In this document: piece by piece, positions 18,010 to 61,815 of the stretch | Position numbering within the stretch: position 1 is the stretch's first letter | How the letters are laid out: each line of letters begins with the position of its first letter | Source of the DNA: Streptomyces roseofulvus | Lineage (GTDB): Bacteria > Actinomycetota > Actinomycetes > Streptomycetales > Streptomycetaceae | Reading direction: 5' to 3' | Length of the DNA: 64,000 nt | Assembly (NCBI RefSeq): GCF_039534915.1 | Contig: NZ_BAAAWE010000001.1 | Coordinates: forward strand, 4,092,001-4,156,000 | Translations under genes and position numbers: made by a program | Notes under the pieces: generated by a model | Seen by the model: the letters and a program-made list of their open reading frames with translations, nothing else | Told to the model about the DNA's origin: nothing | Database searches by the model: none

Positions 18010-18136
18010 CGGAACCGCCTCCTGCTTGTTGCTGGCTCTTCGTCGACTGCGGGATCCAGTCTGACGTACGCCGCCGACACTCGGTGCGGCTCGGGGTCAA
18101 GTCGTGACGAGAGCGCGTCAGGGCTCCGGCGCCGAG

Positions 18137-18788
18137 TTGTGCACAGGCCCCGCTTCAAAACGATTCCCGGGCTAACTATGAGTGGAAGTAGTAGTAGGGC
18201 CTGTGGAAACCGTGGATAACGCCGTCTGCGCAGGTCAGGGCCTGTTTTTTGTCCACCGCCCCTGTGGGTGGAACCGGTGGACAACCACGGTTCTCTGTGG
18301 ACACACGAAAGTTCTGCACACCCGATACACAGGCAGGGGGTAGTTCTCCCCAGTGCTGTCCCCAGCTTTCCCCAGGTTCCCCACAGCCCAAACGTCTCCC
18401 TTGGTGTGACGCCTTTCACTCCGGCCGGTGAGAGGGGGTGTTTTGTTGCCGAACAGTGGACAGCGGTGTGGAGAAGCTGTGGGCAACCTGCCCCTCCCTG
18501 TGGGCAGCCGGTGGACAACTCTTCCGGGCCCCTGTGGACGAAAGATTCATCCACAGGCTGTGGAGATCGGTTGCCAACAAATCCACACCCCCCTGAGCTG
18601 GTGTGATGGGCTGTCACCAGGCCGACCTGTGGACACAATCCGGATAACTCGACAGTCCCCACCCTGTGGACGGGAGATCATCCCCCAATCTGTGGAGAAC
18701 CCGCCACCGGAACGGAGTAATCGAACACGGCCGTCCGGGTCACGGCCCCCTCGTGGCGTCCGTGCGCCATCCACAGACCCTCTCCACA
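18137..18788. other. oriC: Chromosomal replication origin oriC (DnaA box cluster)
   Basis: The 912-bp dnaN-dnaA gap holds no gene but about twenty DnaA boxes related to TTGTCCACA. Those matching 8 of 9 start at 18137, 18249, 18276, 18296, 18467, 18478, 18510, 18533, 18628 and 18691; 18211 (CGTGGATAA) matches the E. coli form at 8 of 9. Boxes matching 7 of 9 start at 18202, 18312, 18377, 18455, 18499, 18547, 18559, 18665 and 18779. Most are in the TGTGGACAA orientation on the + strand. They fall into two groups, 18137-18385 and 18455-18788, separated by a box-poor 70 bp. This fits the split Streptomyces oriC with about nineteen boxes. Confidence 0.95.
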
Positions 18789-20835: not shown

Positions 20836-20856
20836 TTGTCCACAGCCTGTGCACAA
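20836..20856. promoter_or_regulatory. Inverted DnaA boxes in the dnaA-rpmH promoter region
   Basis: TTGTCCACA (20836-20844, perfect) faces TGTGCACAA (20848-20856, 8 of 9), three bases apart, 118 bp upstream of the dnaA start codon. Binding of DnaA here would repress its own gene, as known for Streptomyces dnaA. Confidence 0.75.
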
Positions 20857-52170: not shown

Positions 52171-53508
52171 TCAGCGGGTGGCGCCCGTGACGATCCAGCG
52201 GCCGGAGCGCATCCGGAACCAGAGCGTGGCCATGCGGACCGTCATCATCAGTGTCATCGCCCACCAGAGCGCGGTCAGCCCGCCGCCGGACACCGGCACC
52301 AGCAGGGCGACGGGGGCGAAGACCGCCAGGGTGAGCAGCATCGCCCAGGCGAGGTAGGGGCCGTCGCCCGCGCCCATGAGGACGCCGTCGAGGACGAAGA
52401 CCACCCCGGAGACCGGCTGGGACAGTGCCACGACGAGCAGCGCCGGGAGCAGGGTGGACTGGACGGCGGGGTCGCCGGTGAAGAGCGGGACGAAGAGCGG
52501 GCGGGTCAGGACGAGGAGCAGTCCGAGGACGGCGCCGGAGACCACACCCCACTGGACCATCCGACGGCAGACCTGACGGGCGCCCTCGGCGTCGTCGGCG
52601 CCCAGGTAGCGTCCGATGATGGCCTGGCCCGCGATGGCGATGGCGTCCAGGGCGAAGGCCATCAGGCTCCACAGGGAGATGATGATCTGGTGGGCGGCGA
52701 CCTCGGTGTCGCCCATGCGGGCGGCGACGGCGGTTGCGATCATCAGGACGGCGCGGAGCGACAGCGTACGGACCAGGAGCGGGGCGCCGGCCTGGGCGGA
52801 GGCCCGGATGCCGGCCGCGTCGGGCCGGAGCGAGGCGCCGTGGCGGCGGGCGCCCCGGACGACCACGACGAGGTACGCGGCGGCCATGCCGCACTGGGCG
52901 ATGACGGTGCCCCAGGCGGAGCCCGCGATGCCGAGTCCGGCACCGTAGACGAGTCCGGCGTTGAGGGCGCCGTTGGCCGCGAAGCCGCCGATGGCCACGT
53001 AGAGCGGGGTCCTGGTGTCCTGGAGGCCGCGCAGGATGCCGGTGGCGGCCAGGACGATCAGCATCGCGGGGATGCCGAGGATCGAGATCCGCAGGTAGGT
53101 GGTGGCGTAGGGGGCGGCGGTGTCGGAGGCGCCGAAGAGCTGGACCAGCCCGGGGGCCGTGGGCAGGGTGACGGCGACGACGGCGAGGCCCAGGAGGAGG
53201 GCCAGCCAGATGCCGTCGATGCCCTGTCGGAGAGCGGCGGGCAGGTCGCCGGCGCCGACCCGCCGGGCGACGGCGGCCGTGGTGGCGTAGGCGAGGAAGA
53301 CGAAGACGCTGACGGCGGTGGAGAGCAGGGTGCCGGCGATGGCGAGGCCCGCGAGCTGGGGGGTGCCGAGGTGCCCGACGATGGCGCTGTCGACCATCAG
53401 GAAGAGCGGTTCGGCGACAAGGGCGCCGAAGGCCGGCAGGGCGAGCGAGAGGATCTCGCGGTCGTGCCGGCGCAGTGCGGCCTTGGAGCTCGAGGTGGCC
53501 TGGGTCAT
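52171..53508 (-). CDS. MATE-family efflux transporter
   Basis: The 445-residue protein has twelve spans and the MATE pattern: the N-terminal LSLALPAFGALVAEPLFLMVDSAIVGHLG and the second-half QIIISLWSLMAFALDAIAIAGQAIIGRYLGAD, both given in part. It is of the DinF-like branch and uses a sodium or proton gradient to export cationic drugs or metabolites. ATG 53508 opens into the 424-bp gap shared with dnaB; the palindrome ATGCAATGCAT (53539-53549) is 31 bp upstream and may be its operator. It converges on rplI across parS sites 9 and 10. Confidence 0.9.
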   Translation of the reverse strand: MTQATSSSKAALRRHDREILSLALPAFGALVAEPLFLMVDSAIVGHLGTPQLAGLAIAGTLLSTAVSVFVFLAYATTAAVARRVGAGDLPAALRQGIDGIWLALLLGLAVVAVTLPTAPGLVQLFGASDTAAPYATTYLRISILGIPAMLIVLAATGILRGLQDTRTPLYVAIGGFAANGALNAGLVYGAGLGIAGSAWGTVIAQCGMAAAYLVVVVRGARRHGASLRPDAAGIRASAQAGAPLLVRTLSLRAVLMIATAVAARMGDTEVAAHQIIISLWSLMAFALDAIAIAGQAIIGRYLGADDAEGARQVCRRMVQWGVVSGAVLGLLLVLTRPLFVPLFTGDPAVQSTLLPALLVVALSQPVSGVVFVLDGVLMGAGDGPYLAWAMLLTLAVFAPVALLVPVSGGGLTALWWAMTLMMTVRMATLWFRMRSGRWIVTGATR

Positions 53509-53521
53509 GGGGCCAATCTAA

Positions 53522-53784
53522 TCGTCCACAGGTAAGCGATGCAATGCATGTGTGATCCTTACTTTCATGGGGATCTGGGCTTCGGGTGTGGGCTGTTTGT
53601 TCTGATCGCGATCCAGGGGGAAAAGTTTTTCTCCCCCACAGCCCGTGGATGGAAAAGTCGCAGGTCAGAGCCGTAGCCGGGTGAGTGTTATGAGTTTGTC
53701 CACATGGCTGTCCCCCGGTCCGTGCACAGGATCCGGCGGCTTATCCACAGCATTGGGGCCTTCACCCACAGAGCCTGTGGATAA
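53522..53784. promoter_or_regulatory. DnaA-box cluster upstream of dnaB
   Basis: Four strong boxes occur in the MATE-dnaB gap: TCGTCCACA at 53522-53530 (8 of 9), TTGTCCACA at 53696-53704 (perfect), TTATCCACA at 53741-53749 and TGTGGATAA at 53776-53784 (both perfect to the E. coli form, facing each other). The same 424-bp gap also has a G/A-C/T hairpin at 53616-53638 around AAAAGTTTTT, GATCGCGATC at 53604-53613, and the ATGCAATGCAT dyad. The cluster could titrate DnaA or regulate dnaB. Confidence 0.7.
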
Positions 53785-53932
53785 CCAGATTGGCTGATGC
53801 CCCTCGCGGGCCTACCGTGGACCGGCGCCCGACGCGCCAGCAGCGGACGCAAAGCCACTCTTTGATCAAGGCCGTGGCGTAAGAAGGAGTGGCACGGCGA
53901 GGTCCGCGGAGCGGACGGGAAGAGGTGGCCTG

Positions 53933-55438
53933 GTGAGCGTTCCCGAGCCCATGGACGACCCCTGGGCCGACGGCGGACCGAGCGACCGGCTGCCCGTCCG
54001 CACCCGGGGCGAAGGCCGCGGGGACGGCCGTGGCGAGGGCCGCGGGCGCGGCCGGGGCCGCGACGAGCAGCATGAGCGCGGCAGCGACGGACCCTGGGAC
54101 GGCGGACTCTCCGGCTTCGAACGGGTCCCCCCGCAGGACCTCGACGCCGAACAGTCCGTGCTCGGCGGCATGCTGCTCTCCAAGGACGCCATCGCCGACG
54201 TCGTGGAGATCATCAAGGGCCACGACTTCTACAAGCCGGCCCACGAGACCGTCTTCGGCGCGATCCTCGACCTCTACGCCAAGGGCGAGCCCGCCGACCC
54301 GATCACCGTCGGCGCCGAGCTCACCAAGCGCGGCGAGATCAACCGCGTCGGCGGCGCCTCCTACCTGCACACCCTCGTCCAGTCGGTGCCGACGGCGGCG
54401 AACGCCTCGTACTACGCGGAGATCGTCCACGAGCGCGCCGTGCTGCGCCGGCTCGTCGAGGCCGGCACCAAGATCACGCAGATGGGGTACGCGGCCGACG
54501 GCGACGTCGACGAGATCGTGAACTCGGCCCAGGCGGAGATCTACAAGGTCACCGAGCAACGGACCACCGAGGACTACCTGCCGCTCGGCGACATCATGGA
54601 GGGCGCGCTCGACGAGATCGAGGCGATCGGCTCCCGCAGTGGCGAGATGACCGGTGTGCCCACCGGCTTCAGCGACCTCGACTCGCTCACCAACGGTCTC
54701 CATCCCGGTCAGATGATCATCATCGCGGCCCGTCCCGCCATGGGTAAGTCGACGCTCGCCCTCGACTTCGCCCGGGCCGCGTCCATCAAGAACAACCTCC
54801 CCAGCGTCATCTTCTCCCTCGAAATGGGCCGCAACGAGATCGCGATGCGTCTGCTGTCCGCCGAGGCCCGGGTCGCCCTGCACCACATGCGCTCCGGCAC
54901 GATGACCGACGAGGACTGGACCCGGCTCGCCCGCCGCATGCCGGACGTCTCCCAGGCCCCGCTCTACATCGACGACTCCCCGAACCTGTCGATGATGGAG
55001 ATCCGCGCCAAGTGCCGCCGCCTCAAGCAGCGCAACGGCCTCAAGCTCGTCATCATCGACTACCTTCAGCTGATGCAGTCCGGCGGCTCCAAGCGGCAGG
55101 AGAGCCGTCAGCAGGAGGTCTCCGACATGTCGCGAAACCTCAAGCTCCTCGCCAAGGAGCTGGAGCTGCCGGTGATCGCGCTCTCCCAGCTGAACCGTGG
55201 ACCCGAGCAGCGCACCGACAAGAAGCCCATGGTCTCCGACCTCCGAGAGTCCGGCTCCATCGAGCAGGACGCCGACATGGTCATCCTGCTGCACCGCGAG
55301 GACGCCTACGAGAAGGAGTCCCCGCGCGCCGGCGAGGCCGACATCATCGTCGGCAAGCACCGTAACGGCCCGACGGCCACCATCACCGTCGCCTTCCAGG
55401 GTCACTACTCGCGCTTCGTGGACATGGCGCAGACCTGA
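53933..55438 (+). CDS. dnaB: Replicative DNA helicase DnaB
   Basis: GTG 53933 with AGAGGTGG upstream gives 500 residues; ATG 53951 is possible. A Gly/Arg-rich 55-residue start precedes the N-terminal domain (VPPQDLDAEQSVLGGMLLSK). The RecA-like motor shows Walker A ARPAMGKSTLALD and Walker B VIIDYLQLMQSGG, and the C-terminal DLRESGSIEQDADMV and YSRFVDMAQ are conserved. The hexamer unwinds DNA at the fork and is loaded at oriC through DnaA and DciA. No intein is present. Its upstream region carries the DnaA-box cluster. Confidence 0.97.
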   Translation: MSVPEPMDDPWADGGPSDRLPVRTRGEGRGDGRGEGRGRGRGRDEQHERGSDGPWDGGLSGFERVPPQDLDAEQSVLGGMLLSKDAIADVVEIIKGHDFYKPAHETVFGAILDLYAKGEPADPITVGAELTKRGEINRVGGASYLHTLVQSVPTAANASYYAEIVHERAVLRRLVEAGTKITQMGYAADGDVDEIVNSAQAEIYKVTEQRTTEDYLPLGDIMEGALDEIEAIGSRSGEMTGVPTGFSDLDSLTNGLHPGQMIIIAARPAMGKSTLALDFARAASIKNNLPSVIFSLEMGRNEIAMRLLSAEARVALHHMRSGTMTDEDWTRLARRMPDVSQAPLYIDDSPNLSMMEIRAKCRRLKQRNGLKLVIIDYLQLMQSGGSKRQESRQQEVSDMSRNLKLLAKELELPVIALSQLNRGPEQRTDKKPMVSDLRESGSIEQDADMVILLHREDAYEKESPRAGEADIIVGKHRNGPTATITVAFQGHYSRFVDMAQT

Positions 55439-61623: not shown

Positions 61624-61760
61624 GTGCGCCCCTCCCGAGCCGGCGTGCGTCATCGCAGGATCGTCCCACTATAAATATGTCGATAGGTCGCTGTCGCTCC
61701 CGTGATTGGACACTGACGCACAGTCAACTAGCCTTGTCCGGGCGGGTTCCGCGTGAGGAC

Positions 61761-61801
61761 GGGGGCGTTCCGAGCCACGAGGGGGGAGGCTCGGAGCGCC
61801 C
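61761..61801 (-). terminator. Terminator of the holin-like/phosphatase/lyase operon
   Basis: GGGGCGTTCCGAGCC pairs with GGCTCGGAGCGCCCC (one G-T), loop eleven bases, 14 bp after the PLP-lyase stop. Confidence 0.75.
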
Positions 61802-61815
61802 CGGTCCGAGCCCCG

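What the first reader, a model, noticed from the sequence alone, without database searches (positions are those of the whole stretch)
53522..53784. Strong DnaA boxes outside oriC, upstream of dnaB
Three perfect boxes (one TTGTCCACA, two facing TTATCCACA) and one 8/9 box lie in 263 bp, 33 kb from oriC. High-affinity clusters near oriC (H69, H24, D78) are known in S. coelicolor, where D78 deletion raises initiation. This may be the equivalent, and its position suggests that DnaA also controls the helicase gene.
Basis: partly seen in the sequence, partly recalled or inferred. Interest (0 to 1): 0.55.

Follow-up and report, generated by a model that had tools for sequence, protein, structure and literature searches.

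The report
Conserved DnaA-controlled helicase gene promoter
A fixed row of binding sites for the replication initiator DnaA sits just upstream of the replicative helicase gene dnaB in this Streptomyces and in nearly all relatives sampled, so the protein that starts chromosome copying very probably also sets the supply of the helicase it loads.

Summary
The boxes are real and beyond chance: three perfect DnaA boxes in 89 bp, 35 kb from oriC, plus a weak fourth (C). With the predicted dnaB promoter they form a fixed array: in 101 of 101 Streptomyces examined, box D (TTATCCACA) starts 37 bp before a TAnnnT -10 with a TTG -35 and 17-bp spacer. Boxes also occur there in 40 of 40 genomes sampled from 21 other families of the class (permuted 9-mers: mean 2.4, max 17); promoter phasing is clear in fewer (27 of 61). 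Outside the class the count (5 of 20) is within the permuted range. Published mycobacterial data show DnaA bound upstream of dnaB, and a DnaA mutant binding it less under-expresses dnaB (PMC7738170, passages). Most likely this is a DnaA-responsive dnaB promoter, probably activated, that also holds DnaA near oriC. Control of dnaB: supported. D78 equivalence: not supported; recalled cosmid numbering fits H24. DnaA binding upstream of dnaB is already known in mycobacteria; the class-wide conservation and geometry are added here. Side result: DnaA boxes 3' of crgA are also widespread in the class, possibly the counterpart of the mycobacterial Rv0010c-Rv0011c site.

The parts
53696..53704 (+). DnaA box A, TTGTCCACA
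   Evidence: at exactly 80 bp before box D in 91 of 101 Streptomyces (48 perfect, 43 with 1 mismatch)
53741..53749 (+). DnaA box B, TTATCCACA (TTCTCCACA in 82 of 101)
   Evidence: within 1 mismatch 35 bp before D in 92 of 101
53762..53770 (+). weak DnaA box C, TCACCCACA; faces box D with a 5-bp gap
   Evidence: TCRTCCACA in 87 of 101 Streptomyces at this offset; in other families a plus box at the matching 51/52 bp before a TAnnnT
53776..53784 (-). DnaA box D, TTATCCACA, invariant
   Evidence: perfect in 101 of 101 Streptomyces; starts 37/38 bp before a TAnnnT in 32 of 38 family members of other genera that have a minus-strand box, 7 of 17 of other families, 7 of 15 of family f3
53790..53795 (+). 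predicted dnaB -35 (TTGGCT)
   Evidence: TTGG in 101 of 101; TTG with 17-bp spacer in 101 of 101; no transcript start was measured
53813..53818 (+). predicted dnaB -10 (TACCGT)
   Evidence: T, A and final T invariant in 101 of 101; S. coelicolor dnaB is in the modelled HrdB regulon (PMC6344877, passage)
53933..55438 (+). dnaB, replicative DNA helicase
   Evidence: Pfam DnaB_C 1.5e-108 and DnaB 3.2e-36
53522..53530 (+). outlying 8/9 box E, 174 bp before A; lies between the predicted -35 (53539-53544, minus strand) and -10 (53515-53520, minus strand) of the divergent gene
   Evidence: at this offset 33 of 101 Streptomyces have 1 mismatch and 59 have 2; the promoter assignment is inference from the sequence
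52171..53508 (-). divergent MATE-family transporter gene
   Evidence: Pfam MatE 5.2e-47
53660..53668 (+). GCAGGTCAG, motif of unknown role upstream of the array; also inside oriC at 18230 and at three other places in the window
53871..53898 (+). possible hairpin in the dnaB leader (GCCGTG...CACGGC)
   Evidence: no Rfam family reaches its threshold there; covariation not tested
18130..18780 (.). oriC (reference point): many boxes with 1 mismatch, no perfect TTRTCCACA

Best explanation
The stretch is the DnaA-responsive control region of the replicative helicase gene. DnaA binds boxes A, B, C and D upstream of a primary-sigma-type dnaB promoter; D ends 5 bp before the -35, and in Streptomyces the boxes keep constant distances from the -10. 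From there DnaA most likely raises dnaB transcription (upstream position, no conserved box over -10/-35), so that helicase supply rises with the initiator that loads it. Because the boxes include perfect ones 35 kb from oriC, they should also hold DnaA and act as one of several origin-flanking DnaA reservoirs. Shown here: the array, its geometry and conservation. Shown by others in mycobacteria: DnaA binding upstream of dnaB in vitro and in vivo, and lower dnaB expression in one DnaA mutant that binds it less. Inferred: binding in this Streptomyces, the promoter and its start, the sign of regulation, and the buffering role.
For: Invariant box D, and a 37-bp start-to-start distance to the -10 with TTG at -35 and a 17-bp spacer, in 101 of 101 Streptomyces. 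The 37/38 offset recurs in 32 of 38 other-genus family members with a minus-strand box (other offset pairs: mean 0.03, max 1), 7 of 17 genomes of other families (mean 0.31, max 2) and 7 of 15 of family f3 (mean 0.53, max 4); a combined test with box C gives 27 of 61 against a shift null of mean 3.1, max 14. Boxes with up to 1 mismatch lie 100-450 bp upstream of the DnaB match in 40 of 40 sampled genomes of 21 other families (120 permuted 9-mers: mean 2.4, max 17); the 450-900 and 900-1300 bp stretches give 9 and 4 of 40 (permuted means 1.8 and 2.5). PMC7738170 (passages): M. tuberculosis DnaA pull-down and M. smegmatis ChIP-seq both find the region upstream of dnaB; DnaA I282T binds less there and uniquely under-expresses dnaB. 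PMC8203912 (passage): predicted DnaA boxes upstream of Caulobacter dnaB, which belongs to the DnaA regulon.
Against: No binding, transcript start or expression was measured in Streptomyces here. Outside Streptomycetaceae the phasing is seen in 27 of 61 genomes (11 of 40 across 7 of 21 families; 16 of 21 in family f3), and a few of these will be chance (null mean 3.1), so boxes are more general than one geometry. In the class dnaB stays near oriC: in 25 of the 40 sampled genomes both genes are on one contig, 22-124 kb apart (by hand), so gene control and origin proximity are confounded. Of the other 15, G213 has dnaB at least 470 kb from dnaA and keeps boxes, but its sister G460 has 79 kb, so the move may be recent. 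Other clusters near this oriC are not at promoters of replication genes, which fits a general holding role. The mycobacterial evidence for activation is one allele and may be indirect.
Confidence: 0.7

Rival explanations
1. Primarily a DnaA titration or buffering site near oriC (the H24/D78 idea); its place at dnaB is incidental and dnaB transcription does not respond.
For: 17 of 57 perfect boxes lie within 100 kb of oriC, 2.4% of the genome (p 2e-14; 11 of 44 sites after collapsing neighbours, p 7e-9); TTATCCACA boxes are the most origin-bound, 9 of 14 against 8 of 43 TTGTCCACA, Fisher p 0.002 (positions). Other clusters lie at crgA, kptA and serS-pheA. Deletion of S. coelicolor D78 raises initiation (stated in the finding and recalled, not seen).
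Against: Exact phasing to the dnaB -35/-10 in 101 of 101 Streptomyces and its recurrence in other families is not needed for titration. Mycobacterial dnaB expression is lower in a DnaA mutant that binds this promoter less.
Confidence: 0.15
2. DnaA represses dnaB through this array, as it regulates its own gene, so excess initiator lowers helicase.
For: DnaA autoregulation by binding its own promoter is known in S. lividans (PMC8203912, passage). A DnaA filament spreading from D could cover the -35.
Against: Box D ends 5 bp upstream of the -35 and no conserved box overlaps the core promoter; the mycobacterial mutant with less binding has less dnaB expression, not more.
Confidence: 0.1
3. A nucleotide-exchange or hydrolysis site for DnaA, like E. 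coli DARS or datA.
For: Ordered boxes outside oriC are common to these (recalled; the E. coli sites are named in the abstract of PMC4585315, listing).
Against: No partner-protein site was sought here, and coupling to the dnaB promoter would be unexplained.
Confidence: 0.04
4. Chance or shared ancestry without function.
For: Close Streptomyces relatives share much intergenic sequence.
Against: Boxes in 40 of 40 sampled genomes of other families, invariance of box D amid drifting neighbours, and binding at the corresponding place in M. smegmatis.
Confidence: 0.01

Closest known systems
DnaA site upstream of dnaB in Mycobacterium tuberculosis and M. smegmatis (PMC7738170, passages)
   Same: DnaA bound upstream of the replicative helicase gene in vitro and in vivo; dnaB expression is lower in a DnaA mutant that binds it less
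   Different: No named mycobacterial sequence was compared here; the passages seen describe no promoter phasing; Streptomyces carries a fixed array of three strong boxes and one weak one
Streptomyces coelicolor off-origin DnaA clusters H69, H24, D78 (recalled; paper not held)
   Same: Perfect-box clusters flanking oriC; the dnaB cluster fits H24 by recalled cosmid numbering
   Different: D78, the one with a known deletion effect, is by the same recall one of the +69/+83 kb clusters; whether that paper discusses dnaB or conservation could not be checked
Caulobacter crescentus dnaB in the DnaA regulon (via PMC8203912, passage)
   Same: Predicted DnaA boxes upstream of dnaB; expression depends on DnaA
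   Different: Distant phylum; common origin of the site is not implied
E. coli double DnaA boxes (PMC11317965, passages)
   Same: DnaA prefers closely spaced box pairs with strict spacing at regulatory sites
   Different: E. coli pairs are 2-3 bp apart; here C and D face each other across 5 bp and further boxes lie 21 and 45 bp away, start to start

Membership tests
DnaA-regulated dnaB promoter (mycobacterial type) | DnaA boxes in the upstream region of dnaB | tested here: met
DnaA-regulated dnaB promoter (mycobacterial type) | DnaA binding and dnaB expression that depends on it | not testable with these tools
   shown for mycobacteria only (PMC7738170, passages)
DnaA-regulated promoter in general | boxes at constant distance from the promoter core | tested here: met
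   101 of 101 Streptomyces; 27 of 61 genomes of other families against shift null mean 3.1, max 14; the promoter itself is predicted
Streptomyces off-origin DnaA clusters | two or more perfect boxes within about 300 bp near oriC, outside it | tested here: met
Streptomyces off-origin DnaA clusters | higher affinity for DnaA than oriC; deletion raises origin/end ratio (D78, recalled) | not testable with these tools
   no measurement; oriC has no perfect TTRTCCACA while this site has three
D78 equivalent | same neighbourhood as S. coelicolor D78 | tested here: inconclusive
   paper not held; this genome has separate clusters at kptA and serS-pheA, which recalled cosmid numbering assigns to D78
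E. coli DARS/datA-type site | partner-protein sites and effect on DnaA nucleotide state | not tested
   none

The most novel reading that the evidence does not exclude
Actinomycetes share an ancestral, origin-flanking DnaA control set: a DnaA-driven dnaB promoter on one side of oriC and a DnaA cluster 3' of crgA on the other, the latter being the counterpart of the mycobacterial Rv0010c-Rv0011c site that its authors could not match to other species. Helicase supply and free DnaA would then be set together across the class.
Probability: 0.4. Interest if true: 0.65.

Novelty: new member of a known kind. Interest (0 to 1): 0.47.

Why it matters
It links two separate literatures: off-origin DnaA clusters in Streptomyces and DnaA binding sites mapped in mycobacteria. 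If the dnaB promoter is DnaA-driven throughout the class, initiator activity and helicase supply are wired together, and effects of off-origin clusters on Streptomyces initiation could partly run through gene expression instead of pure titration. Changing one invariant box in place would test this directly.

Tried and rejected
D78 equivalence: not accepted, because other clusters at +69 and +83 kb exist and recalled cosmid numbering favours H24; not settled, since the 2006 paper is not held. A search with D78 as a term showed no occurrence in the 20 listed of 55 papers, D78 was absent from the four papers searched for it, and a search for cosmid-type names gave 23 unrelated papers.

Separating titration from gene control by genome rearrangement: outside the class, 0 of 7 genomes with dnaB about 225-890 kb from dnaA and 4 of 9 with dnaB 32-61 kb away have a box with up to 1 mismatch (distances by hand; boxes). 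Four of the seven far ones are one family (f43), and the class boundary confounds the test; inside the class only G213 was seen to have moved dnaB, and its sister has not. Inconclusive.

Outside the class: 5 of 20 genomes have a box with up to 1 mismatch and 1 a perfect one; permuted 9-mers give mean 1.1, max 8 of 20, so a weak excess cannot be told from chance.

A riboswitch in the dnaB leader (the string GGACGCAAAGCC recalled a c-di-GMP riboswitch): Rfam gives nothing there at gathering level, and at E up to 10 only a weak radC match, 14.8 bits against a gathering score of 40. A possible hairpin remains; 36 leaders fold at -15.9 against -0.4 for column shuffles, but that control is weak and covariation was not tested.

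GCAGGTCAG as a shared oriC/dnaB motif: exact in 12 of 40 class genomes and 3 of 22 of family f3 within 40-520 bp upstream, 0 of 40 and 0 of 22 in the 520-1000 bp control, and in 58 of 101 Streptomyces. It also occurs three more times in the window and is absent from five other box-bearing stretches of this genome. Left open.

Sampling limits: the Streptomyces set is 101 of the 148 genomes with a DnaB match (own plus 100; 160 searched), chosen for contiguity and spread, not at random; the 12 without a match were not examined. The 50 family loci are all 50 matches of 61 genomes; 41 are from other genera, and L132, with 104 bp upstream, gave no data. The class rows are 40 of 71 non-Streptomyces matches, mostly the best-scoring. 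Family f3: 22 matches of 26 genomes. Phylum rows: 20 of 135 matches, picked by hand for distance. crgA: the 30 best of 74 matches in 78 genomes; no locus of family f4, whose G252 and relatives look mycobacteria-like, was among them. In the combined phasing count L338 was left out because it is G213 again.

Full report
What is there. The window is part of a Streptomyces-type chromosome of 8,205,451 bp (window = bases 4092001-4156000). Between a MATE transporter gene (minus strand, 52171-53508) and dnaB (GTG at 53933) lie 424 bp that hold three perfect DnaA boxes, A (53696), B (53741) and D (53776, minus strand), one weak box C (53762) and an outlying 8/9 box E (53522). In the window TTNTCCACA is found 8 times against 0.34 expected. 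The genome has 57 perfect TTRTCCACA boxes, against 15 for the backward pattern. oriC itself (18130-18780) has only boxes with mismatches.

Anatomy. Box D ends 5 bp before TTGGCT; after a 17-bp spacer lies TACCGT, a fair primary-sigma promoter; the coding start follows 114 bp after the end of the -10. In S. coelicolor dnaB (SCO3911) is listed in the modelled HrdB regulon (PMC6344877, passage). The start codon, promoter and transcript start are predictions here.

Conservation in Streptomyces. Upstream regions were taken for 101 of the 148 genus genomes with a DnaB match, the window included. Box D is TTATCCACA in 101 of 101; A, B and D keep exact offsets with at most one mismatch in 91 of 101; all four do so in 78, and with at most two mismatches in 91. 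TTG at -35, a 17-bp spacer and TAnnnT 37 bp from the start of D are found in 101 of 101. The own genome is unusual in having a perfect TTATCCACA at B (mostly TTCTCCACA elsewhere) and a degenerate C.

Conservation beyond. Of 41 loci of other Streptomycetaceae genera (one without data), 40 have a box, 38 a minus-strand box, and 32 have the -10 at 37 or 38 bp from one; other offset pairs give mean 0.03, max 1. In 40 genomes of 21 other families of the class, 40 have a box with at most one mismatch 100-450 bp upstream of the DnaB match, 36 have two or more and 27 a perfect one; permuted 9-mers give means of 2.4, 0.2 and 0.1 and maxima of 17, 6 and 2. Farther upstream the counts fall to 9 and 4 of 40, with permuted means of 1.8 and 2.5. 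In family f3, 19 of 22 have boxes (permuted mean 2.1, max 10). Counting a minus box at 37/38 or a plus box at 51/52 before a TAnnnT, 27 of 61 class genomes are phased (11 of 40, in 7 of 21 families, and 16 of 21 of f3), against a shift null with mean 3.1 and maximum 14; the highest null values are at shifts of -31 and +11, which I take to be other boxes of the same arrays. Outside the class, 5 of 20 genomes of the phylum have a box with at most one mismatch and 1 a perfect one, within the permuted range of mean 1.1, max 8. So the feature looks like a trait of the class.

Function. The passages of PMC7738170 read here report that M. [quoted passage not shown] that ChIP-seq in M. smegmatis found homologues of the same five; [quoted passage not shown] The review PMC8203912 (passages) notes DnaA boxes upstream of Caulobacter dnaB, a member of the DnaA regulon. 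The Streptomyces array therefore most likely does the same job, and its position just upstream of the -35 with no conserved box over the core favours activation. In S. coelicolor the dnaB upstream region is also reported to carry methylated cytosines, and a demethylating drug raises dnaB mRNA (PMC10148868, passages); whether that touches DnaA is unknown.

Titration. 17 of 57 perfect boxes lie within 100 kb of oriC (p 2e-14; 11 of 44 sites after collapsing neighbours, p 7e-9), and TTATCCACA boxes more so than TTGTCCACA ones (9 of 14 against 8 of 43, Fisher p 0.002). A holding role is therefore likely too; the two roles do not exclude each other. dnaB marks the right border of the conserved origin island of about 50 kb in 20 closed streptomycete genomes (PMC8743542, passages). 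In the 25 of 40 class genomes with dnaA and dnaB on one contig they are 22-124 kb apart (by hand), so position near oriC and position at dnaB cannot be parted by comparison alone.

Which known cluster. The four clusters near this oriC are: 3' of crgA (-25 kb), upstream of dnaB (+35 kb), beside kptA (+69 kb) and between serS and pheA (+83 kb). From recalled S. coelicolor cosmid numbering they match H69, H24, D78 and D78; no call bears this. A pair of the kptA type (TTRTCCACA-N12-18-TGTGGAYAA) is found once in each of 40 of 61 Streptomyces genomes, with no match of the reversed control pattern; its place beside kptA was checked only in this genome, but in the 33 genomes with dnaB on the same contig it lies 30-60 kb from dnaB (by hand).

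Side finding. Boxes also lie 3' of crgA in 7 of 7 Streptomyces and 22 of 23 other-family genomes (at most one mismatch, within 500 bp), against 0 of 7 and 1 of 23 on the 5' side; permuted 9-mers on the 3' side give at most 3 of 7 and 13 of 23 (means 0.4 and 1.3). Nine of the 23 show one pattern, plus, plus at 13 and minus at 23 bp; the Streptomyces copies do not, and have a plus and a minus box farther apart. Rv0011c is CrgA (recalled; the paper does not use that name), so the mycobacterial palindromic site that PMC7738170 says has no obvious correspondence in other species probably has one here; no mycobacteria-like locus was among those examined. The listings of two searches (6 papers; 10 of 75) show no paper on this link.

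Verdict. Observation confirmed; interpretation half right: the cluster very probably controls the helicase gene, but it is not shown to be D78. One literature search for DnaA with 'upstream of dnaB' found only PMC7738170, in a library that lacks most subscription papers.

Noticed in passing
L102:1611-1811 (own genome 4085010-4085210), and L357-L386: DnaA boxes 3' of crgA are widespread in the class (7 of 7 Streptomyces, 22 of 23 other-family genomes; 9 of the 23 with a plus/+13/minus+23 pattern that Streptomyces lacks); possibly the counterpart of the mycobacterial Rv0010c-Rv0011c DnaA site.
   Followed up: partly
L103 (own genome 4179210-4179243): A facing pair TTATCCACA-N16-TGTGGACAA beside kptA (RNA 2'-phosphotransferase); the same type of pair occurs once in each of 40 of 61 Streptomyces genomes, control 0. 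A candidate for the D78 cluster, by recall.
   Followed up: partly
L104:853-1111 (own genome 4193352-4193610): Two perfect TTATCCACA boxes facing each other about 250 bp apart between serS and pheA, +83 kb from oriC.
   Followed up: no
L105 (own genome 2810484-2810526): Three perfect boxes in one direction within 43 bp, 1.3 Mb from oriC; neighbourhood not read.
   Followed up: no
53660-53668 and 18230-18238: GCAGGTCAG occurs upstream of the dnaB array and inside oriC; exact upstream of dnaB in 12 of 40 class genomes (0 of 40 in the control stretch) and 58 of 101 Streptomyces. Binder unknown.
   Followed up: partly
53819-53932: The dnaB leader is conserved in part and may form a hairpin (GCCGTG...CACGGC) and a second one before the ribosome site; no Rfam match.
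   Followed up: partly
53506-53544: Box E lies between the predicted -35 and -10 of the MATE gene, whose predicted transcript start falls on the ATG (leaderless); DnaA bound there would be expected to block it.
   Followed up: partly
20836-20856: Facing boxes TTGTCCACA and TTGTGCACA with a 3-bp gap upstream of dnaA, fitting the autoregulation known in S. lividans (PMC8203912, passage).
   Followed up: no
61682-61804: Rfam match to the Streptomyces small RNA Scr3920 (99.6 bits).
   Followed up: no
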